64,000 bases of DNA, from assembly GCA_963669155.1 (NCBI GenBank), contig OZ022592.1, positions 20,657,174 through 20,721,173 on the forward strand. The letters are read 5' to 3'. Made by a program: the position numbers and the translations under genes. The stretch's first letter is position 1; the number at the start of each line of letters is the position of its first letter. This document shows, piece after piece, positions 10,528 to 64,000 of this stretch. This DNA comes from Arbacia lixula. Taxonomy: Eukaryota; Echinodermata; Echinoidea; Arbacioida; Arbaciidae. The notes beneath the pieces are model-generated. The model saw nothing but the letters and a program-made list of their open reading frames with translations, made no database searches and had not been told where the DNA came from.

Positions 10528-12350
10528 GAAAGTTCCATGGCGGCCATTTTTTTCAAAATGGCCGCCATAAATCTGATATTTCCCCATATATCTCTGTTTC
10601 TAAATAAAATAGATCTTTGATTTTAAGTGCTAAACCTATATTTTCAGGGACAAGGAATCAAATAGAATACATTTCAGTATGCAAAAATTGGCACAAAATG
10701 CCGATATGGCGGCCATTTTCCAAAATGGCCGCCATAAACAGATATTTTCCGATATCTCCGCTTCTAAGTGCCATGGAGATTTGATGTGAAGTGTTAAACA
10801 TACTTTTTCAGTGACAAGGAATCAAATAAAATCTATTTCAGAATGCTGAACCTAACACAAAATGCCGAAATGGTTGCCATTTTCCAGAATGGCGGCCATT
10901 TTCCAAAATAATGTAGTGTTATTAGGGTGTGCAATCCAGAGTAGTTTCAGTCTAGAAGATTCTAGGTTTGCCCGATTGTATGCGGGTCTGACGGTGACCT
11001 GTTGTTAGCTTAAATGTCATCCATTTTCCAAAAAAGCCACCATATCATATCTGCAAACCAGAGTAGTTGCAATCTAGAAGATTGTAGGTTTGCCCGATTG
11101 TATGTGTGTCTGAGGGTGACCTGTTGTTAGCACTTCGATTCGATGGTATAAATCATAATCATAACTACAATGCCGGTCAATCAGCGGCAAATCAACTCAT
11201 TATTAGACAATTTATAACCCGACCCCCTTCAACTTTTTTAAAACTTGCGCCAAATGTTTCCCAAACATCTGATGGACGAATTTGAAATATGTTGCATAGA
11301 CATAGAACTTTGATTTTCAGTGCTAAGTATACATTTTTGGGGGGCCAGGAATCCACTGAAACACATTTCAATAAGCTAAACCTGGCTATACAGCTTAAAC
11401 AACAGCCATTTTCCAAAATAGCCACCATATAAACCTGATATTTCCCAATATCTCCATTTCTAAATGACTTAGGGCTTTAATTTTCATGGCTAAGTATACA
11501 TCTTCTGTGGCCAGGAATCCAATGAAAACGTTTTAATAAGCTATACCTGGCCAAAAAGCTTAAATGGCATCCATTTTCCAAAAAAAGCCACCATACAACC
11601 TTGATATTTCCCAATATCACTGCTTCTGAATTACTTAGGTCTTTTCAGTGCTAAATAACATTTTCTGGGGCCATGAAACACATTTCAGGGAGGTAAACTT
11701 GAATAAAAAGCCTAATTGGTAGAAATTTAAAAAAATGGCCGCTAAAAAACCGATATTTCACCATATCTCTGATTCTAAATGACTCAGGGCTCTTGTTTTT
11801 TCAGTGCTACACATACATTTTTAGGGGCCAGAAATCCAATAAAGCGCATTCTGATAAGCTATACCTGGTCAAAAAGCTGAAACAGCATCCATTTCCCAAA
11901 ATAAACACCATATAAACCTGATACTTCTCAATATCATCGCTTCTTGATTATTCAGGGATGTGATTTTTAGTACTGAATATACATTTTCTGGGACCACGAA
12001 ACCAATAAAACACATGTCAATAAGCTAAACCTGACTAAAAAGCTTAAATGGCAGCCATTATCCCAAATAACCGCCAAATAAATCTGATATTTCTCAATAT
12101 AATTCTGCTGTTTAATGACCAAGTAACTCGATTTGCTGTGCTAAACGTACATTTTCTGGGGCCAGGAATCCAATGACACACATTTCAATAAGCTAAACCT
12201 GGCTATAAAGCTTAAACAACAGCCATTTTCCAAAATAGCCACCATATAAACCTGATATTTCCCAATATCTCCATTTCTAAATGACTTAGGGCTTTGATTT
12301 TCATGGCTAAGTATACATCTTCTGTGGCCAGGAATCCAATGTAAAAAAGA
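10528..12350. repeat. Diverged tandem satellite, about 166-bp period
   Basis: The phrase GGCCAGGAATCCAAT or close variants recurs near 11343, 11509, 11825, 11991, 12160 and 12326, and ACAAGGAATCAAAT near 10650 and 10815; spacing is about 160-168 bp. Each unit includes AAAATGGCCGCC- or AAAATAGCCACC-type words and GATATTTCCCAATATCTC. The array is interrupted at about 10915-11195 by a different pair of repeats. Non-coding. Confidence 0.85.
10927..11131. repeat. Two direct copies of an about 80-bp unit inside the satellite
   Basis: 10927-11009 and 11052-11131 share AGATTCTAGGTTTGCCCGAT (one mismatch) and TGACCTGTTGTTAGC. Spacing about 123 bp. Confidence 0.75.
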
Positions 12351-30957: not shown

Positions 30958-31560
30958 CTAAGCATATATATGTAATATTTCATAGATCATGCTAAGTAGC
31001 ATTACAAGAAATGTTAACATTATTAATGTTATCGGTAACTCAGCAGTAGGGTCATCTTGGCTGACATGAGTGGATCCTGGTACCCCAGCAGTAGGGTCGT
31101 ATTGGCTGACATGAGTGGATCCTGGTAGCCCAGCAGTAAGGTCATCTTGGTTGACATGAGTAGATCCTGGTAGCCCAGCAGTAGGATCATCTTGGCTGAC
31201 ATGAGTGGATCCTGGTAGCCCAGCAGTAGGGTCATCTTGGCTGACATGAGTGGATCCTGGTAGCCCAGCAGTAGGGTCATCTTGGCTGACATGAGTGGAT
31301 CCTGGTAGCCCAGCAGTAGGGTCATCTTGGCTGACATGAGTGGATCCTGGTAGCCCAGCAGTAGGGTCATCTTGGCTGACATGAGTGGATCCTGGTATCC
31401 CAGCAGTAGGGTCATCTTGGCTGACATGAGTGGATCCTGGTAGCCCAGCAGTAGGGTCATCTTGGCTGACATGAGTGGATCCTGGTAGCCCAGTAGTAGG
31501 GTCATCTTGGCTGATGTCTTCATCATCACTCTCCTCGTCCTCCCTGTTCTCGAACCACAC
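30958..31560 (-). CDS. NLR exon 15: acidic linker, 15-residue repeats, hydrophobic tail
   Basis: The terminal 603-base exon (200 codons plus stop); acceptor TTTCATAG|GTG, phase 0. It starts VWFENREDEESDDEDI, continues with ten full and one partial copy of SQDDPTAGLPGSTHV (45-bp DNA repeat), and ends with LPITLIMLTFLVMLLSMIYE, then ILHIYA and stop. The last 26 residues are strongly hydrophobic with one acid, consistent with a single C-terminal membrane anchor. The repeat is Asp-, Pro-, Gly- and Ser-rich and is probably a flexible stalk. Membrane insertion is inferred, not shown. Confidence 0.68.
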   Translation of the reverse strand: MWFENREDEESDDEDISQDDPTTGLPGSTHVSQDDPTAGLPGSTHVSQDDPTAGIPGSTHVSQDDPTAGLPGSTHVSQDDPTAGLPGSTHVSQDDPTAGLPGSTHVSQDDPTAGLPGSTHVSQDDPTAGLPGSTHVNQDDLTAGLPGSTHVSQYDPTAGVPGSTHVSQDDPTAELPITLIMLTFLVMLLSMIYEILHIYA

Positions 31561-49200: not shown

Positions 49201-52200
49201 AGCAGTATTGGTATAGATTTTTAATCACTAAGAACACTCACTCGAAATATGTAATCAAATCAAAGTAGCTTGTTGTAAAGTAACTATATTCGTGCATCGA
49301 GTCTTCGATAACGCACACTGAGCAGAAATACGCGGGGGCCGGTTTCAAGGGTAGGGCCAGGGGCCGTGGTGTGTAGACCACTCACTCTACCTGTGTGCCA
49401 GAAGCAAAGACCGTAGAGCGCTGCGAAGCAACGCAAGACTGACTACTCTCTCGTATTTGCACACACAAAGTGTAATTTGTTATGGTACCTGTGTATGGTA
49501 TGATCCTTTATAACAGAAATACACAATGTTTATAAGCAAGAGCGCACGCAGATTAACATGGTCAATTAATGCTTTGCATAGCTGGTGTTGAGGTTCAGCC
49601 TCGAAAAACTCAGGTACACTCATTTTGGACTAGTCTAGAGCTTTTTTTTACGCCACCTCAACATTTTGAAATTTTAAAGAATTATGTATCATTTCTGGAA
49701 AACATAACAAACTGACTGCATCATTATTTCCTTGTTATTAGTGTTGATACATATTTGCAAACACTAATAACACAGACACTCACATGGAAAATAAAGTCAA
49801 TGTCGAAAGTTAAAGTCGAACTTGTTTTAGTACCTGTGTGCCCGAAGCCTTCGATGCTAATGCTGAGAAGAAGCCATCGTGAAAGGTACACAGGGTGAGA
49901 CTGACCTTTGTCAGACTGGGTGCTCCGCACACAAACAGACCAAGATCACGTGATGCAGACGCGTTCATCTCAAGGTTCATGACGTGCAGATCTAAGCTCT
50001 CGATCTGTACAAAGTGATCCAAAAACGATCAGAACAGAAATACACAAGATTTATAAACAAGAGCGCATATAGATTAACATGATCAAGTAATGTTATTTAA
50101 AGCCCCTGTCGATGTAACTTTAATTTGTAAATGAACTATTTATCAACTAGCCGAATTTGTTATATTACCTGTGCGCCTAAAGCCTTCGATGCTACTAATG
50201 CTGAGAAGAAGCCACCGTGAAAGCTACAGTTGTCGAGACGGACCTTTGTCAGACTGGGTGCTCCGCACACAAACAGACCAAGATCACGTGATGCAGACGC
50301 ATTCATCTCAAGGTTCATGACGTGCAGATCTAAGCTCTCGATCTGTACAAAGTGATCCCAAAACGATCAGAACAGAAATACATAAGATTTATCAACAAGA
50401 GCGCACAGAGATTAACGTGATCAGTTAAAGTTATTTAAAGTTCATTTTGAAGTTAAGCCTGGAAAAAAAAATCAAAACTAATTTGGGTTTTGAGCTAATA
50501 TTTCGGTGTTTGGAATTTTTAAGGCAGTATCTCAAATTGTTTTAAAGTGTATAAGTTGCAGTACATACATTTTTGATAGAGAATCATAATACAGATACAG
50601 AACAAACTGACTGCGTCATTATGTCCTTGTTAGCAGTGTTGATACAAGTTTGCAAACACTAACATCTCGATCTGTACAAAGTGCTTAAAGATTGATATGG
50701 TCATTAAATGATGTTTATAGCCCATGTGAAGGTTCCGCCTAGAAAAACTCTAAACTTATTTTGGACTAGTCTAGAGCTTACTTTAGGCTATCTCAACATT
50801 TAGATTTTTGAAGGAAGTATTTTTGGTTCTATGTGACGTGCTTAATTTGCAGTATAGGCCTAATTTTTATTAATAAGATGATTAACAAGACCATAATAGA
50901 ATTACAGTACAAACTAACTGTATCATTATTTCATTGTCATCACTACTGATACACATTTTCAATCACTAAGAACAATCACACAAAGTTCATGAAATAAAGT
51001 CAACGTGTGTTAATTTTTTTTTTATTAACTTGTCACATTTGCTATAGTACCTGTGTGCCTGAAGCCTTCGATGCTATTGCTGAGAAGAAGCCATCGTGAA
51101 ATATACACCGGTAGAGACTGACCTTTGTCAGACTGGGTACTCCGCACACAAAAAGACCAAGATCACGTGATGCAGACGCATTCATCTGAAGGTCCATACT
51201 ACTCAGATCTAAGCTCTCGATCTGTACAAAGTGATTACAAAACGATCAAAACAGAAATACACAAGATTTATAAACAAGAGCGCACACATATTGACATGAT
51301 CAAGTAATTGTATTTTATAGTCCATGTCGATGTAACTTTAATTTGTAAATAAACTATTTATCAATAAGTCGAACTTGTTATAGTACCTGTGTGCCTGAAG
51401 CCGTCGATGCTAATGCTGAGAAGAAGCCATCGTGAAATCTACAGTAGTCGAGACGGACCTTTGTCAGATAGGGTGCTCCGCACATAAACAGACCAAGATC
51501 ACGTGATGCAGACGCCTTCATATAAAGGTTCATGCCGCTCAGATCTAAGCTCTCGATCTGTACAAAGTGATTACAAAACGATCAGAACAGAAATACACAT
51601 GACTTATAAACAAGAGCGCACACAATTGACATGATGAATGAATGCTATTTATAGCCCGTGGTAAGTTTCCACCTCGAAAAACTCTAAAATTATTTTGGAC
51701 AGGTCTAGAGCCTATTTTAGGCCACCTCAATATTTTGGATTTTTAAAGAAGTATGTGTCATTTCTGGAATACATAACAAACCTACTGCATCATTATTTCC
51801 TTGTTAGCAGTGTTGATACACATTTGCAAACACTAATAACACAGACACTCACATGGAAAATAAATTCAATGTATTTTTTGTAAATGAACTATTTATCATC
51901 TATTCGAACTTGTATTAGTACCTGTGTGCCTGAAGCCTTCGATCCTAATGCTGAGAAGAAGCCATTGTGAAAGCTACACCAGTAGAGACTGACCTTTGTC
52001 AGACTGGGTACTCCGCACACAAACAGACCACAAACAGACATGATCAATTAATGCTATTTATAGCCTGTCCCATGTTGAGGTTCCGCCTCGAAAAAAAAAA
52101 ATCTAAACTTATTTTGGAGTAGTCTAGAGCTTATTTTAGGCCACCTCAACATTTAAATTTTTGGAGGAAGTATTTTTGGTTCTATGTGATGTGCTTAATT

Positions 52201-55200
52201 TGCAGTATTGGCCTACATTTTATTAACAATATTATTAAGAAGACCATAATAGAATTACAGTACAACCTGACGGTATCATTATTTCCTTGTCAGCACTATT
52301 AATACACATTTTCAATCACTAAGAACACTCACACAAAGTTCATGAAATATAGTCAACGTGTGTTAAAAAAGAATTCACTAACTTGTCACATTTGTATTAG
52401 TACCTGTGTGTCTGAAGCATTCGATGCTAATGCTGAGAAGAAGCCATCGTGAAAGCTACACTCGTAGAGACGGACCTTTGTCAGACTGGGTACTCCGCAC
52501 ACAAACAGACCAAGATCACGTGATGCAGACGCATTCATCTCAAGGTTCATGACGTGCAGATCTAAGCTCTCGATCTGTACAAAGTGATCCCAAAACGATC
52601 AGGACAGAAATACATAAGATTTAAAAACAAGAGCGCACACAGTTTGACATGATCAGTTAATTCTATTTAAAGTCCATGTCGATGTAAAATCTAATTTGTA
52701 AATAGCTAGTTATGAAATTGCTGAAGCTGTAGTACCTGTGTGCCAGAAGCTTTTGATGCTAATGCTGAGAAGAAGCCATCGTGAAAGCTACACTCGTTGA
52801 GACGGACCTTTGTCAGACTGGGTACTCCGCACACAAACAGACCACAAACAGACATGATCAATTAATGGTATTTATAGCCTAACCCATGTTGAGGTTCCGC
52901 CTCGAAAAAAAAAAAACTCTCAACTTATTTTGGACTAGTCTAGAGCTTATTTTAGTCCACCTCAACATTTCAATTTTTGAAGGAAGTATTTTTGATTCTA
53001 ATTTTTATGTGACTTGCTTAATTTGCAGTATAGGCCTACATTTGATTAACAAGAGTATTAACAAGACCATGATAGAATTACAGTACAAACTGACTCTACC
53101 ATTATTTTCTTATCAGCACTATTCATACACATTTTCAATCATAAAGAACACTCACACAAAGTTCATGAAATAAAGTCAACGTGTGCTAAAAAAATAATTC
53201 ATTAACTTGTTACATTTGTTAAAGTACCTGTGTGCCTGAAGCCTTCGATGCTATTGCTGAGAAGAAGCCATCGTGAAAGCTACAGTGGTCGAGACTGACC
53301 TTTGTCAGACTGGGTACTCCGCACACAAACAGACCAAGATCACGTGATGACGACGCATTCATCTGAGGGTACATCTTGCTCAGATCTAAGCTCTCAATCT
53401 GTATAAAGTGATCCAAAAACGATCAGAACAGAAATACACAAGATTTATAAACAAGAGCACACACAGTTTGACATGACCAATTAATGGTACTTAAAGTTCT
53501 TGTCGGTGTAAAATTTAATTTGTATATAGCTGGTAATGAAATTGATGAACATGTGTGCCTGAAGCCTTCGATGCTAATGCTGAGAAGAAGCCATCGTGAA
53601 ATCTACACCAGTAGAGATTGACCTTTGTCACACACAAACAATCCACAAACAGACATGATCAATTAATGCTATTTATAGCATACCCCATGTTGAGGTTCCG
53701 TCTCCAAAAAACTCTCAACTTATTTTGGACTAGTCTAGAGCTTATTTTAGGCCACCTCAACAATTACATATTTGAAGGAATTATTTTTGGTTCTACGTGA
53801 TGTGCTTAATTTGATGATTATAGGCCTACATTTTATTAAGAAGATTATAACAAGACCATAATAGAATTACAGTACAAACTGACTCTATCATTATTTCCTT
53901 GGCAGCACTATTAATACACACTTTCAATCACTAAGAACACTCACACAAAGTTCATGAAATATAGTCAAAGTGCGTTAAAAAAAACATTAACTTGTCACAT
54001 TTGTTATAGTACCTGTGTGCCTGAAGCCTTCCATGCTAATGCTGAGAAGAAGCTATCGTGAAAGCTACATTCGTCGAGACTGACCTTTGTCAGACTAGGT
54101 ACTCCGCACACAAACAGACCCAGATCACGTGATGCAGACGCATTCATCTGAAGGTACATCTTCTTCAGATCTAAGCTCTCGATCTGTACAAAGTGATCCC
54201 GAAACGATCAGGACAGAAATACACAAGATTTATTAACAGTTTGACGCATTCTTCTGAAGGTCCATCATGTTCAGAGCTAACCTATCGATCTGTACACAGT
54301 GATTAAAGAGCGCACACAGATTGATATGGTCAGTAAACGATGTTTATAGCCCATGTGAAAGTTCCGCCTAGAAAAACTCTAAACTAATTTGGAGTAAAGC
54401 TAGCTAGTTCACAACTGGAACTGCAAGAGCAGTATTTGCCTATAAAACGAAGGTATCAGTAAGTAGACCTACTAAATGTGTTTTGCTCTCAATAGAAAAG
54501 TCAGAATATAGATTTAAGATTGTTAGTGCTGCGCAATCAGAGCTGCCTCATGTCTCACGCATTCTGCGTGAGACTCGAGCATTCTGCGTGAGGCTCATGC
54601 ATTCACCGGGGTCCGTCACTGGGTTCCGTCACGCATGACACCCATTCTCTCACGCATCGGCACTCGACATGAACAAAAAAAAAAGTAGCATTATTTGCTA
54701 TATATTTGCTATATAGGAAATAGGGTACGCACTGGCCTAGGCCGCCTCTGCACGAGCCGCACGAGCCGTCTTCCAAAATTATTAAATAAAAATGTCGCTT
54801 AAGTATGCACCAAATTGCAAAAAAAAGATGAAAAAGCTAGCTATTTGCTACCGTGGGAGGGGGGACACCCACCTCCCAATCTTCCCTCGCTCGGTCGCTT
54901 CGAGACGCCGAAGTTTGAAAATCTGACATAACTTTTTTTAACTTGGCGTCTCACTACAACCCACGTAGTACACGTGTTGAGTGGGGTGGGAAGGGGTGAC
55001 ATCAATGGTAATATATCATGTACATGCCTGTCAGAGACGGAGAGAGACGTTATGAGAAGACATATTGTCCGTGATAGGGAGAGGGAGACAGAAGTGAGAT
55101 ATAGAGAGGGAGACTAGTGCGAAGATAAAAACAAAGTGCAATGTGGGAGAAAACGTAGATACAATAGGCTCATAATGGACACAGGGGAGCCACTATACGG

Positions 55201-58200: not shown

Positions 58201-61141
58201 AATTATTTGAAGTGATACAGAGAACGAGATAGAGAATGATAATCCAGATGGGCGATTCCTCCTAGCGGGAATGGAGTAAGACAAAGAGAAGCGAAAGAAG
58301 AGAATAAAGAAAGAAATGTTATATTATATAATCATATAATATATATTGGTACCTTAAATAAAACAAATGATACGCGGTGTTTACTGCAATTCCGAACATA
58401 TCTGCATTCAAATTACCAGATTGATGTGCTTCTTGACATACAAGTAGCCTGAAAGAGTGTGAGATGTTATCTTAGAGCCATCATGAATGTGGATAGCTCT
58501 GTCCCTCAAGACATGCTGTACTGCTTCCATTGCTACTTGACTGTGACATTCATACGCTACGTCGACGAGAAAATCAGTGTTGCTCTGCCTGTCCTCATAA
58601 TAGACAGCCCTCTCATCCTTCGTTGGAAGGCGTGATAAAATGTCGACTCCTACACCTTCATCCTGGCCTGACATGAAGTAGACAAGGTACCTGAACTCCC
58701 TGCAATGTGGAATGACGATCTGAGACATGACGTAGTCGTACCAAGAACGGTCTGTGCGGTACAGAGCTGCCAGGTGCATCGCAGCAAGATTCTCCTGTAA
58801 CAACTTGTGGGGGAAGTGGAAGGTAGACATCACAGGAGAAGAGGTGTTACACCTGTCTTTCCTTTGAGAAAAACACCTTTCTCGAGACAGGACACCTATC
58901 CTACATCCAGCCTCCATAGCCTCTGGACATGATTCGAAATCGCTCTCTGACAAGTCAAGTCGTTTCTTGAAAAGCCCAATGAGCGCAATCTCCCCAATCT
59001 TTTTCAGAATGCCAAGAGCGTCATCACGCCGACTGCCTACATCTGATGCATCTTCATATGACTGGCATCTACTCTTTGAAATGTAGTGATCAATGAGAAA
59101 GTCGACAATTTCTCGGAAAAGCTGGGAGAACGTCTGGAGCCGGTGCATTGCCTGACGCCTCTCCTGGTCATAATCTTTCCACATGATACACAGCATAGCC
59201 GTGTAGACTGGGAAGGGAGACATGTTCTGTGCGATGACGTCATTGTCATGAATGAACTGATTGAGATCAGAGCCTGAAACTGGGTCTTTAACAAAGAACT
59301 TCGTGATGTAGGATGCCAAGTTATCAGGAGTGAATCCTTGAACCGCTATGAATGCATACGCTTGTCTCAGCTCCTTCCGGCCCCGTATCTCATCAGCTCG
59401 CCAGGGTCTTGACGTGACTAGCACAGTGGTGCTCTTGTACGCGTGATTGTGCATTATCTCGGGGATGTCTTGGGAGCTCCTGAGGTCCCCACCATACTCG
59501 TCCAAGCCATCGCAGACGAGAAAGACGTCTTTTTGATTAGTGAGGATGTACTTGTCGATCTGCCACGCTTCTACAGGATTGCTGTCAGGAAGGTAGGTCT
59601 TGATGACTTTGCCCACAGTCTGGTCGTTAGCATAGCGAAGGAGAACTATGAGAATCAGCTTGAATTGTTGGAAGCGTCTTCCCTTCAGCCAGTCCCAGGC
59701 AAGTCGGGCGCACAACGTTGTCTTTCCAGCTCCCCCTTCTCCCTCGACCAGAAGCCGTTTTGGGTAGGCTCCATTGACCTTTGTTTGTAATAGTTTATCG
59801 TAATCCAGCGGCACTTTACACTTTGTGTACTTCTCTTCTTCCACCAGTTCAAGATTGGTGAAGATATCGTCAAACTGAAGGAGCTTGTCGAAATTTAGCG
59901 GGTCCGCCTGTATTTGGCAGAGCCGCGTAGCGTAGTAGTACTTCAGGTCCTCAGAGCACCGCTGAACATCCTCATCCGACAGAGAAGAGAAAGCAGTCGT
60001 GTCAAGTCCTGTACAAAGAGATAAAAGATACAGCATGTAACCAACCCCCTCCTAGCATGGGCGCGTAGCTCGGATGGACATAATATGTCAATCCGTGCAT
60101 AGTGCGGATATTCAAAACAATAATTTAGCCAAGAATGCTTGAATACAAACAACAGGCTATTCAAAAGAAGCCGAAGCTTAACAGAATGAAAACCAAAAGT
60201 ATATCATATCGTACGAAATGACGGACGGAGGGTTTTCATAATAGGCAGCTTTCTAACGCGAGACCGAACGTCGAGCTACTACGAGTGACGTCATGTTTTG
60301 CCACTGCGCATTCCCGAAAGCCTACACTCGCGTCGCCGTCCAATTCTGACGACGGGAGTCGGGGGAAAATTTCCCGATTCCACGTTGTGGTGAAAACGAC
60401 AACGTGAGTGCGATTCACTTGTCCAAACTATCGGACTAGGTAGGTCTATTTTGTTGTTTCTACTTCTTGCATCATAAAATAGTTTCTTGAGAGGGCTTGA
60501 AATATAAACTACCAATCATTATGCGATCACATTTTTCATGAAATCGTTTCTTAGATCATGTAAATTTGAGTGAAAGTTCATGTTTTAGCCGAAGTCATGT
60601 TTCCCAGCGGAAATCGACAAGGCCGGCCGCCGCGGCTGGCGGGCGACACATCGGGTGAGTTGCCTAGCCTTAATGGTTTTAGCTATCGGTATAAGCGCAG
60701 GTATTTGCACAAAAATACTCGTTTATGAACATTGTTAGGGTTAACTTTTCTGTTTATGGGTATGTTTAAGAAATTACTAGGCCTATCGTCGAGCATATCG
60801 CAGACAGTAGGCCTATGCAAATGCAAACATATCTCTAGCTCGGTGTAAGTTAAAGCCTGCATGCGCCGGAGCCTGAAGCTCGCCATTTCGGTTGATTCAG
60901 CGTGCGATGTATTCGACCATAGCGCTGGCGAAGCTTCGCACCGCTCTACGCACGGTCTTTGATCTGAACATTTAGTCACGTGATATCGCTGAAGGCCGCG
61001 GCCCCGTCGTGAAAACCGAAAGCGGTTCTGCGACAGAACGAACGAGAGCTGCACAACGTCGATACGCACCAGTTAACTCGTAGTAGCTGACGTTCGGTCT
61101 CAGGTTAGAAAGCTCCGTAATAAGCCGTAGCGTGAAGGTGT

Positions 61142-61184
<43 letters not shown>

Positions 61185-63461
61185 GTGCGTTCCACTCTAA
61201 CTTATTTATCTATTCATCATTTATGTATTAAAATTTGTATCTACTAGTATCTTTCGTGTATTGGAAATCAGGCAGAAAAAATAGCTTAATCAAATCAACT
61301 TTAAAATCAAGATGTTATCACAGTAATAACAACTACATGTTCGCATGGACTAATCGCAGCAGGATAAGATAACGTGCATGCATCATCATAATATCTACCA
61401 GCGGCAAGGCGATCTGCAAGATTCTCCAAGGGAATAGAACGTAGTTTATCAACCAGGATCGTCCTCGCCTCTTCCTCCTTTACTGTTTTCAGCCAGTCAT
61501 TCAGCATGTGGTAGGTTGCCCATTCGATGCTTTGCTTGTCGTGTTCATATCGGCGCAGCGCGGCTTCGGTGATCCCTAAGGCCAGGCCTACTTTCCTGTA
61601 GTCTTGTGGATCCATCAGCTCGGCCAACTTGCACACTTCTAGAGACTTTAGGTTCTGAGGCCTGGGAGGTAGAATGACAAACGTAAACATGGTTAAACGT
61701 AATAAGACTTGATCGCACGTTGTACTGTCAAGCCATGGATGTGTGTAACAGTGGAATACTGACAACCTTCTCGTGTTCTTCCATATAAATTATGTTACAC
61801 TAAAACATTGTATTTTCAAAGAACAAAACACCCGATTCACCAATGAAACACTGAGTAGCACAGAAATGGTAGAAGTACCGTCAACATGTTGAAAGTACTG
61901 TTTTTGTAATTAAGACTCACATGGCATGGTGTCAAGTGCTATTGGAATTAAGCCGTGTCATGAACTAAACAAACCATCATGCTCGTATTAGGGATTAAAC
62001 TGCCATAGTTTTACGGCAACTTTAATTCCGTTATGCGCTAGACTCAAGGATAGATAAGGGGAAAAAATAGTTTTACATCACGCATTAAGAGGTAACACTC
62101 ACTTCTCGTTTGGACCGGGGTTCGTCTCCACGTCCCCAGCTTGTAGGAGAAGCAATTCCCCGATGCAGGCGATGTCATTGTCCACGTTAGATGTGTTATC
62201 TTTGCACTGCTCAGTCGTACACTTGGCTGGCGAGACAGCATTAGGTGGACGTTCCTTAAACACAAACATGGATATACGAATAAAGGAAGTGTTTAAGTTC
62301 TATGTTGTTGATCATAATTGCGGGAGCAGGTTAGGAGTTTCACAGGGTAAAAACGATTGTACAACATACTTCTGAGAGAGTTTAATTATTTCAGCATGTC
62401 CAGAGTGCCATTATTGCGCAGTATACATTGATATAATTCACATATCATTAATTGTTGCATAACAGTGAACAAGGGCTTCATACACGTCTTGATGACACAC
62501 TGGTGTGTCAGTCTGTTTTGCCAGAAGTGGTAAACAGAGATAATGGTATTGCCCTTCAGTATTGATATCGCTTTTATCATTTTCTAATCCATTTCAACAT
62601 AGGACCTACAGTCAGTAAAACGGATCAGCTATGTCCGTTTCTAGCATTGCCTTTTCATTGGATACTATCTGGGTAGAACTGTTCGTACACTAGCACCGTC
62701 AAATGTAGTTCAACAAGTTCATATTAAATTACTGGGGAAAAAAAAATCACTGAAAAACTTACCAATGATGATTGAGGTATTTCGACTGTCACAGAGGTAG
62801 TCTTGCTGAGATCGAATCCAGGACAAGAACAATTGACCTTCCTTACTAGATGTTCAGAGAGTGTGCCTTCTACCGGTATGTCGCTCTTCGTGCACGGTTC
62901 AGATGTTGATTCGCAAGCGTCGTAGCTGGCCTGCGTTCGTGGATTTGTTGAAGAGGACTTGTTGTTAGAAGATTGGACGCTTTCTGTTGTCAAGGATAGC
63001 TGCGTTCCATCTGCTCCACTTGTACAACTTGAACCTGTGGTCTCGACAGAAGAGTAGCTTTGAGGCGTACCTTCCATTGTGAGGTCTTGATTGGCATTGC
63101 CCTGGACGCTCCCATCCTTTGCGCAACTGTCGTTGCTTCCTTTGTCTTTGCTAGCTGTGTTCAACGAGCCAGCATACGATGTAGAGGCATTTTCGTTAAA
63201 GTCATTTTGGGAATATGGCTCTCCATTCTTGGACATCCCCTGATTGTTTGTTGATCTTTTTCCTCTTTCCGTGCTGACTCTTTCATTCCTCTGGCAGTAT
63301 TCGTCATATTTTCGTTTGAGCTTCAGTAAGCCAAACAACTTTTCTACAAAGTCAAGTGATTGCTCAAACATCCTGCTCTGCCTTTCAAGCCATGTTTTCT
63401 TCCGCCTTCGTTGAAAGAAGCAACCGATACGAGCACGCCATTCACAGATTTGGATCGGCAT
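30958..63461 (-). CDS. NLR-type receptor: leader-2A-Death-NACHT-LRR-repeat-TM tail
   Basis: Fifteen exons on the minus strand, by coordinates: 63461-62763, 62254-62103, 61661-61399, 60008-58417, 57978-57808, 54183-54013, 53398-53228, 52574-52404, 51557-51387, 51221-51051, 50342-50169, 50004-49834, 35744-35365, 32481-32379, 31560-30958. All introns start GT and end AG and all phases agree, giving 1720 codons plus stop. From sequence: 2A motif 273-281, Death domain about 288-371, NACHT about 373-902 (Walker A 461-469, Walker B DGLDE 538-542), LRRs 903-1486, acidic linker, 15-residue repeats, hydrophobic C terminus 1695-1720. Family knowledge: NLRs are intracellular nucleotide-switched immune sensors that oligomerise through NACHT and signal through Death-type domains; echinoderms have large NLR sets. 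Inference: the distal exons (35.7-31.0 kb) belong to the same transcript, because phases fit across a 14-kb intron; RNA would decide. A further 5' exon may exist. A possible ATTAAA poly(A) signal lies at 30874-30879 (complement). Confidence 0.8.
31039..31512 (-). repeat. Coding 45-bp minisatellite, about 10.5 copies
   Basis: Tandem 45-base units, nearly identical, each encoding S-Q-D-D-P-T-A-G-L-P-G-S-T-H-V. The unit is a multiple of three and carries no stop, so copy number can change without breaking the frame. The copies nearest the stop codon have most substitutions (NQDDLT, SQYDPTAGV). Confidence 0.95.
32379..32481 (-). CDS. NLR exon 14: short linker
   Basis: A 103-base exon, acceptor CTGTTCACAG|GAT, donor GAAGAG|GTATGT, phase 2 to 0. 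It encodes IMGCGPDARLDSVAEEVNQ, then GRVRVTVDHSAPEE. No known domain. Support comes from consensus splice sites and exact phase fit on both sides. Confidence 0.65.
32560..34950. other. NLR intron 13 interior
   Basis: Between exon 13 and exon 14. AT-rich, no repeats or genes recognised. Confidence 0.55.
35365..35744 (-). CDS. NLR exon 13: long LRR-like exon
   Basis: A 380-base exon, acceptor ATGATTGCAG|GCT, donor CTCAG|GTAAAG, phase 0 to 2. It encodes about 126 residues with LRR-like spacing: LTRLTVDEETL, then FPSLKRVTLVV, LSGVTVLNVI, LLKLTVTDYTW and HPHLRVLR. It is diverged from the short cassettes. Phase 0 at its start matches exon 12 and phase 2 at its end matches exon 14, which is why I place it in the same gene despite the 14-kb intron. 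Alternatively these last three exons belong to a separate downstream NLR remnant. Confidence 0.7.
36025..40168 (+). CDS. Transposase-like protein (DUF7869-type), six exons
   Basis: Exons: 36025-36638, 37322-37602, 37951-38285, 38670-38771, 38997-39466, 39925-40168. All splice sites are GT/AG and phases fit, giving 681 codons plus stop. The start ATG has G at -3 and +4. Residues 40-90 are very acidic (Asp/Glu runs). Cys pairs follow in GCKCSRRC and CKPMTDLCWKC, probably metal-binding. The C-terminal half has SFDFAQQ (D406), LHCDNCSGQNKN (D485) and AGHTKFSPD (H521, D527), spaced like an RNase H-fold transposase core. I associate the HCDNCSGQNKN signature with the multi-copy invertebrate family Pfam calls DUF7869; this is from memory. 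No stop or frameshift is present, so it is either recently active or domesticated. It lies wholly inside the NLR intron on the opposite strand. AATAAA signals lie at 40484-40489 and 41046-41051. Confidence 0.85.
40169..41070 (+). other. Probable 3' UTR of the transposase-like gene
   Basis: AT-rich sequence after the stop with two AATAAA hexamers (40484-40489, 41046-41051). No reading frame of note. Extent is inferred from the signals only. Confidence 0.45.
42061..42530. repeat. Tandem duplication, about 232-bp unit
   Basis: Copies start ATCACTC-AGCCGTC at 42061 and 42292. Both contain GATTAGAGTTCGTTTTTGTT-type text and AGCTCAAAAGTGTGTGCCGC; a third start (ATCCCTCGAG) begins near 42526 but breaks off. 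Confidence 0.85.
42611..42640. repeat. (CAT)n microsatellite
   Basis: About ten CAT trinucleotides; the surroundings (41860-42780) are rich in degenerate ATCATAATCATCAT-type text. Confidence 0.9.
43178..43243. repeat. (GA)n microsatellite and G run
   Basis: GA dinucleotides to about 43213, then GGGGG-rich sequence. Confidence 0.9.
44029..45552. repeat. Two tandem copies of a 762-bp higher-order unit
   Basis: GAGATACGATGAATCGGCTT at about 44041 recurs at 44803, and the texts run in parallel to about 45550 with few differences. Each copy is built of shorter degenerate units of roughly 60-75 bp with words like GATAAACCGGTAGTTTATTT and GACGGGCCTGGCTTTAT. Non-coding. Confidence 0.88.
45553..46060. 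repeat. Degenerate continuation of the 60-75 bp minisatellite
   Basis: GATAAACCGGTAGT-type and GCGGGCTTAGCTAAT-type words continue without the 762-bp higher-order period. Confidence 0.7.
47930..48020 (+). mobile_element. Possible 3' end of a non-LTR element
   Basis: GGTGGAAATATAAAATTGAA followed by TCTTGAA resembles the end of the 20-24 kb retrotransposon (GTGGAAATAAAAAAATCAAT). No reverse transcriptase is recognisable upstream. Confidence 0.3.
48430..49357. mobile_element. MITE-like element with about 55-bp imperfect inverted repeats
   Basis: The left end (CTAAACCGGCCCGCGTATTT, then CTGCTTAATGCGCGTTATCG) is inverted at 49302-49357 with a few mismatches. Inside, GGCCGGTTTCA-type words recur near 48918 and 49108. 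No coding capacity. It sits in the large NLR intron just downstream of the LRR array. Confidence 0.6.
49391..49450 (-). pseudogene. Decayed 3' end of an LRR cassette
   Basis: The end reads FASGTQ at a GTAGAG donor like the intact cassettes, but upstream homology is badly eroded. Possibly an old unit at the downstream edge of the array. Confidence 0.4.
49834..50004 (-). CDS. NLR exon 12: LRR cassette 7
   Basis: A 171-base phase 0-0 exon. It begins IESLDLHVMNLEM; the inner strand reads VSLTLCTF; it ends ASGTQ|GTACTA. The next coding exon I can find on this strand is 14 kb downstream. Confidence 0.85.
50169..50342 (-). CDS. NLR exon 11: LRR cassette 6, one codon longer
   Basis: A 174-base phase 0-0 exon. 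It begins IESLDLHVMNLEM; the inner strand reads VRLDNCSF. An extra Val codon gives SALVASKALGAQ, so the frame is kept. Confidence 0.85.
51051..51221 (-). CDS. NLR exon 10: LRR cassette 5
   Basis: A 171-base phase 0-0 exon. It begins IESLDLSSMDLQM; the inner strand reads VSLYRCIF; it ends ASGTQ. Confidence 0.85.
51387..51557 (-). CDS. NLR exon 9: LRR cassette 4
   Basis: A 171-base phase 0-0 exon. It begins IESLDLSGMNLYM; the inner strand reads VRLDYCRF; it has FMCGAPYL where most copies have FVCGVPSL. Confidence 0.85.
51922..52029 (-). pseudogene. Truncated LRR pseudo-exon A
   Basis: The 3' part of an LRR cassette (about 108 bp) with an intact donor but no acceptor or first 60 bases. The homology stops at GTCTGTTTGTG, which is duplicated at the breakpoint. 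Without an acceptor it is unlikely to be spliced in. Confidence 0.8.
52404..52574 (-). CDS. NLR exon 8: LRR cassette 3
   Basis: A 171-base phase 0-0 exon. It begins IESLDLHVMNLEM; the inner strand reads VRLYECSF; it ends ASDTQ. Confidence 0.85.
52736..52848 (-). pseudogene. Truncated LRR pseudo-exon B
   Basis: Same truncation point as pseudo-exon A, 814 bp away, with an intact donor and no acceptor. The shared breakpoint shows it was copied together with its flanks. Confidence 0.8.
53228..53398 (-). CDS. NLR exon 7: LRR cassette 2
   Basis: A 171-base phase 0-0 exon with the same splice contexts as its neighbours. It begins IESLDLSKMYPQM; the inner strand reads VSLDHCSF; it ends ASGTQ. Confidence 0.85.
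53552..53650 (-). pseudogene. Truncated LRR pseudo-exon C
   Basis: Third copy of the truncated cassette. The donor is lost (ACACATG instead of ACACAG|GT) and about 20 further bases are deleted near the breakpoint. Confidence 0.75.
54013..54183 (-). CDS. NLR exon 6: LRR cassette 1
   Basis: A 171-base phase 0-0 exon, TTTGTACAG|ATC ... ACACAG|GTACTA. It begins IESLDLKKMYLQM and ends ASGTQ; the inner LRR strand reads VSLDECSF. It has a W for S near the end (ALAWKASG). Confidence 0.85.
54237..54293 (-). pseudogene. 5' fragment of an LRR cassette
   Basis: The reverse of the other remnants: acceptor TGTACAG|ATC and the first 16 or so codons (IDRLALNMMDLQKNAS) are kept, then a stop; the 3' part and donor are missing. 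Confidence 0.7.
54410..57600. other. NLR intron 5 interior
   Basis: Between the divergent LRR exon and the cassette array. It contains a small palindrome (CTCACGCATTCTGCGTGAG, about 54556-54574) and a G run at 56337-56350. No genes recognised. Confidence 0.5.
57808..57978 (-). CDS. NLR exon 5: divergent LRR cassette
   Basis: A 171-base phase 0-0 exon (57 codons) with acceptor CTCAATAG|AAA and donor CAG|GTAAGA. It encodes KTLSIARRCGRT, then SPSLRSLALQDG, ending AGSSQ. Length, phases and the closing S-x-Q match the seven LRR cassettes at 54.2-49.8 kb, but the sequence is much more diverged. It is probably the oldest LRR unit and sits between NACHT and the recent expansion. Confidence 0.75.
58417..60008 (-). 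CDS. NLR exon 4: NACHT ATPase and winged-helix region
   Basis: A 1592-base exon encoding residues 372-902. Acceptor TTTGTACAG|GAC; donor CTG|GTAATT, phase 0. Walker A is GEGGAGKTT (461-469); Walker B is LVCDGLDEYGG with the extended acidic DGLDE (538-542); sensor 1 is TSRPWR (570-575). A later FPHKLLQE (770-777) matches the F-x-H-x-x-x-QE motif typical of the winged-helix/superhelical end of NACHT proteins. All catalytic and nucleotide-binding motifs are intact. Known role: ADP/ATP switch that drives oligomerisation on ligand sensing. One large exon for the whole NACHT region is the usual arrangement in animal NLRs. Confidence 0.93.
60242..61118. mobile_element. MITE-like element with about 45-bp imperfect inverted repeats
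   Basis: AGCTTTCTAACGCGAGACCG, then AACGTCGAGCTACTACGAGT at the left (about 60248-60287), matches the complement of 61076-61115 with few differences. TAATA flanks both ends (possible target duplication). Lies in the NLR intron between the Death and NACHT exons. No coding capacity. Confidence 0.6.
61149..61181. repeat. (GA)n microsatellite
   Basis: GA dinucleotides just beyond the right end of the intronic MITE-like element. Confidence 0.95.
61399..61661 (-). CDS. NLR exon 3: Death domain
   Basis: A 263-base exon, acceptor TACCTCCCAG|GCC, donor GCTG|GTAGAT (a weaker donor, but phase 1 fits the next exon exactly). It encodes residues 284-372. The pattern LAELMDPQDYRKVGLALGI, then ...YEHD...A..ML.DWL......A...LVDKL..I.LENLADRL, has the spacing of a Death-superfamily six-helix bundle. 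Known role: homotypic binding to adaptor or effector Death domains. By position it becomes the N terminus of the receptor after 2A skipping, preceded only by PNEKPQ and a few residues. A DED assignment is less likely given the W in helix 5. Confidence 0.82.
62103..62254 (-). CDS. NLR exon 2: 2A ribosome-skipping peptide
   Basis: A 152-base exon, phase 0 to phase 2, with acceptor TTTAAG|GAA and donor GAA|GTGAGT. It encodes about 30 residues with three cysteines, then ELLLLQA and GDVETNPGP. The last nine residues match the 2A consensus D-V/I-E-x-N-P-G-P exactly, with the usual hydrophobic Leu run before it. Known of 2A: the ribosome fails to form the Gly-Pro bond, releases the upstream chain and continues from Pro, giving two proteins from one reading frame. 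Here the break would fall between residues 280 and 281, just before the Death domain. 2A-like sequences are reported from sea urchin NLR-like proteins and from echinoderm non-LTR retrotransposons. Recruitment from a retroelement is a possible origin, but I see no retroelement around this exon. Confidence 0.88.
62111..62137 (-). other. 2A motif GDVETNPGP
   Basis: The nine codons read Gly-Asp-Val-Glu-Thr-Asn-Pro-Gly-Pro in frame with exons 1 to 4. The Gly-Pro skip site is at 62116-62111. Every invariant residue of the motif is present. Confidence 0.9.
62763..63461 (-). CDS. NLR exon 1: basic, Ser/Thr-rich leader module
   Basis: Encodes residues 1-233. It starts at an ATG with G at -3 (MPIQICEWRARIGCFF), followed by a basic cluster (RRRKK) and a likely amphipathic helical stretch around FEQSLDFVEKLFGLLKLKRKY. 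Then about 150 low-complexity residues rich in Ser, Thr, Asn and Gly follow. It ends in PQSSL at a clean donor (TTG|GTAAGT), phase 0. Upstream is a long pyrimidine tract and AG at 63474-63473 (or 63472-63471), so an additional 5' exon is likely. I recognise no domain. Because a 2A motif follows in exon 2, this module would be released as the main part of a separate 280-residue protein. The start choice is tentative. Confidence 0.7.
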
Positions 63462-64000
63462 GTCGAAAAACTCTAAGAAATGAAAGTGAAAAAGAAAGAA
63501 AGAAAAAGTTTTCATGTAAAGTGTTTCTCTGCTACTATTCAAAGGAAGTTAACACTCGCAATTAACTGTAACATAAATCAACTCCATAAGCCACGTGGGG
63601 AGAGGAGGGGTGCGTGTGCTAGACATGGGGTCTATAGACGTCATGAACGCACAAGGTGAAAACACAAAAAAAAAAACTAAAAGAGCTTTCGCGAGAAAAA
63701 ATACATGTTGGCCCTACAGTTTAGGGTTAAGGACTTAAGGTTTGATATTCTACAATGTCTGAGTGTTGTTATCATGCTTATGTGTATCTCTGTACGTGCC
63801 TAGCCTTGTACTTCCAAAAGCTACAATAGGAGCGTAAATGTGATGAATTGTTCTGTAAGCCCCGTATTTTACAACAAGTACCCCAGGGATGATCTTGATA
63901 TCTGTGTAGTAACGTGTTTGATCTATATTTACCTCTCGATCGTCATGATCGTTGTTTCTAGCAATAGCCATAGTGCATCACCCATGTCAACCCAGAACTT

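What the first reader, a model, noticed from the sequence alone, without database searches (positions are those of the whole stretch)
62103..62763. In-frame 2A ribosome-skipping peptide inside an NLR gene
ELLLLQA-GDVETNPGP matches the 2A consensus at every invariant residue and is joined by exact splice phases to exon 1 on one side and the Death exon on the other. One mRNA would make a 280-residue leader protein and a Death-NACHT-LRR receptor in equal or tunable amounts. 2A-like sequences are known from sea urchin NLR-like proteins, usually close to the N terminus. Here it follows a long 280-residue module of unknown function, so the partner protein itself is of interest.
Basis: partly seen in the sequence, partly recalled or inferred. 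Interest (0 to 1): 0.88.

Follow-up and report, generated by a model that had tools for sequence, protein, structure and literature searches.

The report
Self-splitting immune receptors with leader protein
A large family of immune receptor genes in this animal genome carries a virus-style signal that should make the ribosome leave out one peptide bond, so that each message gives a separate leader protein and a separate receptor; leader and signal are found together in several distinct groups of the family.

Summary
Window 62254-62103 (-) encodes IGELLLLQAGDVETNPGPNE, a complete 2A/StopGo signal, spliced in phase between a 233-codon leader exon and a Death exon, then NACHT. It is not a chance match. 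The 607-Mb genome holds 31 close copies each of leader, 2A exon and Death exon; each of those 2A exons has a Death exon downstream. The 2A core is under strong amino-acid constraint (14 silent, 4 replacement changes); the upstream part of the same exon is not (10, 46). Skipping the 2A exon breaks the frame.

The leader has an N-terminal WRxRIGxF motif (usually Trp 8) and a fast-evolving linker. Between the two groups whose whole leaders were aligned, its two ends are what is conserved; the motif recurs with 2A in about five groups. Seven retrotransposon-like 2As read have another layout; two NLRs carry the published sea-urchin N-terminal form. Host 2A in NLRs is known (PMC4981915), so this is a new variant. 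Transcription, skipping and the leader's job are untested.

The parts
63471..63500 (-). pyrimidine-rich tract and 3' splice site just upstream of the leader start codon, implying at least one non-coding exon further upstream
   Evidence: same feature ahead of the leader exon in close and divergent copies
62763..63461 (-). leader exon, 233 codons from ATG; N-terminal WRARIGCF motif (Trp 8), then Ser/Asn-rich linker
   Evidence: 31 close copies, none with an internal stop; one of them lacks about 109 residues of linker. 20 of 20 fetched exons matched end to end in one frame with no stop, about 23 stops expected
63309..63461 (-). N-terminal block of the leader (first 51 codons)
   Evidence: aligns with leader starts of other NLR groups
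62103..62254 (-). 2A exon, 152 nt, phase 0 in, phase 2 out
62111..62155 (-). 2A/StopGo signal LLLLQAG-DVETNPG^P; predicted skip between GGT 62116-62114 and CCA 62113-62111
   Evidence: constraint
61399..61661 (-). Death-domain exon
   Evidence: Pfam Death 7.8e-09; splice phases
58417..60008 (-). NACHT exon (3' donor inferred by eye from the sequence)
   Evidence: Pfam NACHT 7.1e-19; joined frame
49813..54207 (-). five mutually similar LRR-like open stretches (54207-54007, 52598-52389, 51245-51045, 50366-50163, 50028-49813); exon limits not determined
   Evidence: Pfam silent

Best explanation
It is a host-encoded StopGo (2A) signal in a large animal NLR family. One spliced mRNA encodes leader-2A-Death-NACHT (with LRR-like exons further on). 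When the ribosome reaches NPG^P it should omit the Gly-Pro bond, releasing a 280-residue leader that ends in the 2A tail, and go on to make a receptor that starts with Pro about 11 residues before its Death match. The Death domain is then free at its N terminus. The leader, with an N-terminal WRxRIGxF module and a probably flexible linker, is made alongside each receptor. I think the leader most likely acts as a co-made partner or targeting element of the receptor, and that ribosomes which do not skip leave a minor leader-Death fusion. Shown by sequence: architecture, family-wide pairing, constraint on 2A, open leader frame. Inferred: transcription, skipping, its efficiency, the role of the leader.
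For: Sets of 31 leaders, 31 2A exons and 31 Death exons; 31 of 31 such 2A exons have a Death exon downstream on the same strand. 2A core pN/pS 0.07 against 1.34 for the upstream part of the exon; tree-based counts 14 silent/4 replacement, p=2.8e-5 against neutral. Leader open in 20 of 20 exons read, about 23 stops expected under no constraint. Eight further loci on C19, C12 and C22 carry a related leader; in the 4 of these read, leader exons of 232-237 codons join the 2A exon at phase 0. WRxRIGxF pattern: 31 of 36 genome sites have a 2A within 25 kb downstream on the same strand, 27 of them within 5 kb; 0 of 36 have one within 5 kb upstream; the sites fall into about five groups, so they are not 31 independent events. 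45 of 74 NACHT matches have a 2A upstream. The core and the L-rich hexamer ending in (A/S/C)G fit the structure- and assay-based rules of PMC12846837. A sea-urchin NLR 2A was estimated at about 80% active in cell-free translation (PMC4981915).
Against: No RNA or protein evidence. Within the window's clade the leader linker evolves near neutrality (0.91 of neutral, p=0.42) and its first 48 codons only weakly below it (0.70, p=0.12). Two of 20 leader exons lack the ATG, and 4 of 20 (those two included) have lost the motif's Trp. Of 43 Death matches with E below 1e-15, three have no 2A found. Two Death matches hold stops: C8 (one, within the 31) and C16 (two). An in-frame ATG lies just upstream of the 2A exon's splice site in the window, L018, L023, L031 and L032, so a shorter transcript is possible.
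Confidence: 0.82

Rival explanations
1. The 2A works as in the published sea-urchin NLRs: a short N-terminal 2A made from a transcript starting near the 2A exon, acting mainly as a dual targeting signal, with the leader exon used rarely.
For: Two NLRs in this genome have a start Met and a hydrophobic run shortly before the 2A: C22:4209534 and C10:463158 (judged by eye). An in-frame ATG lies just ahead of the 2A exon in the window, L018, L023, L031 and L032.
Against: The 2A exon of this family itself has no Met ahead of the 2A core in most copies read and no long hydrophobic run; its splice acceptor is kept in the copies read; in two of the four second-group copies read (L033, L034) a stop lies in frame just ahead of the acceptor with no ATG between; the leader exon is kept open in 31 copies.
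Confidence: 0.1
2. The 2A exon is a captured fragment of a retrotransposon and has no present role.
For: Retrotransposon-like ORFs with DVExNPGP occur in the same genome.
Against: The seven read place the 2A before a cysteine-rich, PHD-like sequence, with no WRxRIGxF in the roughly 1.1 kb fetched. NLR 2A cores are under strong constraint while adjacent codons are not, and recur in several NLR groups.
Confidence: 0.04
3. The 2A is translated but mostly not skipped; it is conserved as an ordinary peptide segment.
For: Sequence alone cannot measure skipping.
Against: The conserved residues are the ones needed for StopGo, and the flanks are free to change.
Confidence: 0.04

Closest known systems
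N-terminal 2A-like sequences of Strongylocentrotus purpuratus NLRs (SpNLR2A), PMC4981915
   Same: Host NLR genes with a Death-NACHT-LRR plan and an L-rich GDVETNPGP signal upstream of Death; [quoted passage not shown]
   Different: The characterised ones are 26-residue N-terminal peptides that double as a signal sequence; here the 2A follows a leader exon of 233 codons with a WRxRIGxF start
Viral StopGo/2A elements with L-rich upstream hexamers (motifs 2 and 6 of PMC12846837)
   Same: Core octapeptide and hexamer ending in (A/S/C)G before D
   Different: Cellular, spliced, one signal per immune receptor gene
2A of non-LTR retrotransposons (Odon 2013, seen only in reference lists; not held)
   Same: Core motif, in frame in the N-terminal part of an ORF
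   Different: In the seven retrotransposon-like copies read here, followed by a PHD-like finger (Pfam support in one of two scanned) and, by eye in some, endonuclease-like sequence; no WRxRIGxF in the stretch read
Vertebrate NLRP1/CARD8, which split by autoproteolysis (recalled; the names appear titles)
   Same: A receptor chain delivered as two polypeptides
   Different: Protein self-cleavage after synthesis, not skipping during translation; no sequence comparison was made

Membership tests
StopGo/2A elements | core D(V/I)ExNPGP | tested here: met
StopGo/2A elements | upstream hexamer of a known active class (L-rich, (A/S/C)G before D) | tested here: met
   LLLQAG; compared by eye with the rules
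StopGo/2A elements | in-frame coding sequence on both sides | tested here: met
   constraint
StopGo/2A elements | two products in translation | not testable with these tools
   needs an assay
NLR (Death-NACHT-LRR) | NACHT domain | tested here: met
   7.1e-19
NLR (Death-NACHT-LRR) | Death effector domain | tested here: met
   7.8e-09
NLR (Death-NACHT-LRR) | C-terminal LRRs | tested here: inconclusive
   five mutually similar LRR-like stretches, no Pfam match
SpNLR2A N-terminal signal-sequence 2A | 2A at the very N terminus, shortly after the start Met | tested here: not met
   a 233-codon leader exon precedes it in frame; a shorter transcript is not excluded
SpNLR2A N-terminal signal-sequence 2A | predicted ER signal peptide | not tested
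   no signal-peptide predictor here
2A-bearing non-LTR retrotransposon | 2A followed by zinc finger/endonuclease ORF | tested here: not met
   a Death exon follows; retrotransposon-like copies differ

The most novel reading that the evidence does not exclude
The WRxRIGxF leader and the 2A are two ends of one functional device: a class of immune receptors made as a two-part polyprotein, in which the leader acts on or beside the receptor and the fraction of ribosomes that fail to skip yields a fused, differently behaving receptor. The skip ratio could then report the state of translation, for example when a pathogen disturbs elongation or release.
Probability: 0.15. Interest if true: 0.9.

Novelty: new variant of a known kind. 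Interest (0 to 1): 0.66.

Why it matters
StopGo is described as largely viral and only very rare in cellular coding sequences (PMC12846837). Here 45 of the 74 NACHT matches found in one animal genome have it upstream, 42 of them behind a leader with its own recurring motif. That gives a natural host system in which to ask what StopGo is for outside viruses, and points to a protein module that travels with it. I found no description of the motif: a search for 'WRARIG' gave one unrelated paper. Searches (13 of 13 papers listed; 3 of 3; 20 of 58; 12 of 32; 12 of 28) listed no paper whose title or abstract start describes a long 2A leader in NLRs; the library holds open-licence papers only.

Tried and rejected
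Retrotransposon origin of the exon: rejected as a present-day explanation, because the seven retrotransposon-like 2As read in this genome sit before a PHD-like sequence. Chance motif: rejected. Known domain in the leader: none in Pfam at E up to 1 for the window's leader; of 16 leaders scanned one matched SURF2 at 0.026, taken as chance; none among solved structures. Viral or phage relatives of the leader: 7 viral stretches matched a pattern but none was confirmed; no phage match. Leader fold: not obtained. Weak leader matches at 24-26% identity (best E 0.007), many in ORFs of about 1315 residues, were taken as low-complexity chance and not read. Codon analyses used 20 of 31 leaders, 22 of 31 2A exons and 17 of 31 Death exons; one search used 20 copies and 15 Death exons. 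Leader lengths divisible by three follow from how the exons were cut (one-frame matches) and are not counted as evidence. The five groups were drawn by eye from sequence and position; no tree across groups was built. Of the 74 exact 2A sites, more than ten that tie to no NACHT and have no detected leader were not fetched or read. Coordinates were typed.


Full report
What is there. On the minus strand at the right end of the window lies the 5' part of an NLR gene. The leader exon (63461-62763) opens with ATG and encodes 233 residues; the 2A exon (62254-62103) encodes ERPPNAVSPAKCTTEQCKDNTSNVDNDIACIGELLLLQAGDVETNPGPNE; the Death exon (61661-61399) and NACHT exon (from 60008) follow. Leaving out the 2A exon shifts the frame and meets a stop, so leader and receptor can share one frame only through the 2A exon. 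A splice acceptor sits just ahead of the leader ATG in close and distant copies, so an upstream non-coding exon is expected.

It is a family, not an accident. The window lies in contig C17 (20.66-20.72 Mb) of a 607-Mb genome. That genome has 31 close copies of the 2A exon, 31 of the Death exon and 31 of the leader (counting one that is reported in two pieces and lacks about 109 residues): 29 of each in a 3-Mb stretch of C17, one on C8 and one on C50. Each of the 31 2A exons has a Death exon downstream on the same strand, at 0.6 to 22 kb. The Death match on C8 holds one stop. The DVExNPGP pattern occurs 63 times in the genome and its reversed control 0 times; the D-[I/M]-E-x-NPGP form 11 times, control 0.

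Selection. In the copies read (22 2A exons, 20 leaders, 17 Death exons), pooled pN/pS is 0.07 for the 2A core, 1.34 for the upstream part of the same exon, 0.65 for the leader (bootstrap 0.51-0.83) and 0.23 for Death. Counting changes on a tree of 20 copies (silent changes per base, replacements per codon) gives 14 silent and 4 replacement in the core (p=2.8e-5 against neutral), 10 and 46 upstream (p=0.22), 140 and 344 in the leader and 56 and 41 in Death (15 copies). The 2A peptide is thus kept at the amino-acid level while its neighbours drift. The leader's amino acids are only weakly kept within this clade (first 48 codons 0.70 of neutral, p=0.12; rest 0.91, p=0.42), but it stays open: 20 of 20 exons match end to end in one frame without a stop, against about 23 stops expected. 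The neighbouring intron differs twice as much as the leader in the same 16 copies (0.19 against 0.09). Copies are related and may have been converted by one another, so the p-values are guides, not exact.

The leader has two conserved ends. Eight loci on C19, C12 (23.5-23.6 Mb) and C22 carry a related leader. In the four of them read, a leader exon of 232-237 codons (donors chosen by me) joins the 2A exon at phase 0; about 44 residues at the start (MPVS-x-GEWRARIG...) and the LLLQAGDVExNPGP end resemble the window's, the middle hardly. Three further groups, drawn by eye, have a motif start and a 2A: C12 1.05-1.75 and 8.76-8.89 Mb (MGVSVDVWRARIGGF, MGISTNVWRARIGSF; at 8.76 and 1.26 Mb a second WRxRIxxF stretch lies between that start and the 2A), C22 9.75-9.88 Mb (MPISLGEWRLRIGKF) and C12 7.93 and 9.5-9.8 Mb (MPVSLSEWRVSIGRF); their whole leaders were not assembled. 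Trp is residue 8 in the starts aligned except one with Gln. Among the 20 window-clade leaders it is residue 8 in 12, residue 6 in four, replaced by Gln in two and by Arg in the two that lack the ATG. Of 36 genome sites of the pattern WRxRIGxF, 31 have a 2A within 25 kb downstream on the same strand, 27 of them within 5 kb; none has one within 5 kb upstream. Ten of the 31 are in the window's clade and eight in the second group, so they are not independent. The reversed pattern gave 11 sites, so the 5 unpaired sites may be chance.

How common it is. A NACHT scan gave 74 matches (a lower bound for the family; a few are partial); 45 have a 2A upstream on the same strand within 45 kb with no other NACHT between, and 29 have none. 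Of the 45, 42 also have a detected leader. The other three: C22 4.2 Mb and C10 0.46 Mb carry a 2A shortly after a Met, like the sea-urchin form, and C12 9.66 Mb has no strict motif match. Of 43 Death matches with E below 1e-15, 40 have a 2A upstream; C16 5.0 Mb (two stops in its Death match), C22 9.19 Mb and C22 1.84 Mb do not. About 2.7 kb upstream of the latter two showed none.

Not the retrotransposon kind. DVExNPGP sites at C14 6.1, C9 8.0, C2 26.9, C12 8.3, C1 50.7, C2 28.2 and C12 9.85 Mb lie in open frames in which a cysteine-rich, PHD-like sequence follows (L045-L051). Two were scanned: L050 matches PHD at 3.4e-07, L047 only at 0.084. L044 could not be classified. None of these stretches of about 1.1 kb shows the motif.

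Mechanism. A 2026 structural and biochemical study (PMC12846837: outline, passages, sections 6, 9, 10) finds that D12, E14 and N16 contact the ribosome, that L-rich upstream hexamers ending in (A/S/C)G before D form recurring classes, and that changing characteristic residues nearly abolishes activity in almost all cases tested. LLLQAG-DVETNPGP fits. A sea-urchin NLR 2A ending in the same GDVETNPGP was estimated at about 80% active in cell-free translation (PMC4981915: outline, passages, sections 5, 6, 9). I therefore expect efficient but incomplete skipping: a 280-residue leader ending NPG, a receptor starting P-NEK-PQNLKSLEV just before Death, and some fusion. What the leader does is open. 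Its start is basic with a possible amphipathic stretch at residues 22-48, its linker is about half Ser/Thr/Asn/Gln/Gly, and no library searched names it. A co-made partner or targeting element is my preferred reading; the shared start across groups, the second motif copy in one group and the free linker are compatible with it but do not prove it.

Novelty. [quoted passage not shown]). New here, as far as the searches show, are the long spliced leader, its WRxRIGxF signature, its tie to 2A across NLR groups, and both leader and N-terminal forms in one genome.

Mends after checking against the calls. None of these changes the odds.

Noticed in passing
window 31034-31514: A 45-bp tandem repeat, 10.7 copies at 95% match, inside a 200-residue open frame on the minus strand made of SQDDPTAGLPGSTHV units.
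   Followed up: partly
window 10537-12346: Arrays of about 164-168-bp repeat units, 69-79% matches, satellite-like.
   Followed up: no
L042 (C22:4207900-4212500): An NLR with a start Met, a long Leu run and GDVETNPGP ahead of a Death exon: like the published sea-urchin signal-sequence form, in the same genome as the leader form.
   Followed up: partly
L035 with L040, and L036 (C12): A second WRxRIxxF stretch between the motif start and the 2A, suggesting that the motif is a repeatable small unit.
   Followed up: partly
C17:18537305, C17:18543274 and C17:18549243: Three receptor copies about 6 kb apart with equal or nearly equal match scores, which suggests a recent tandem duplication; the copies were not aligned with each other.
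   Followed up: no
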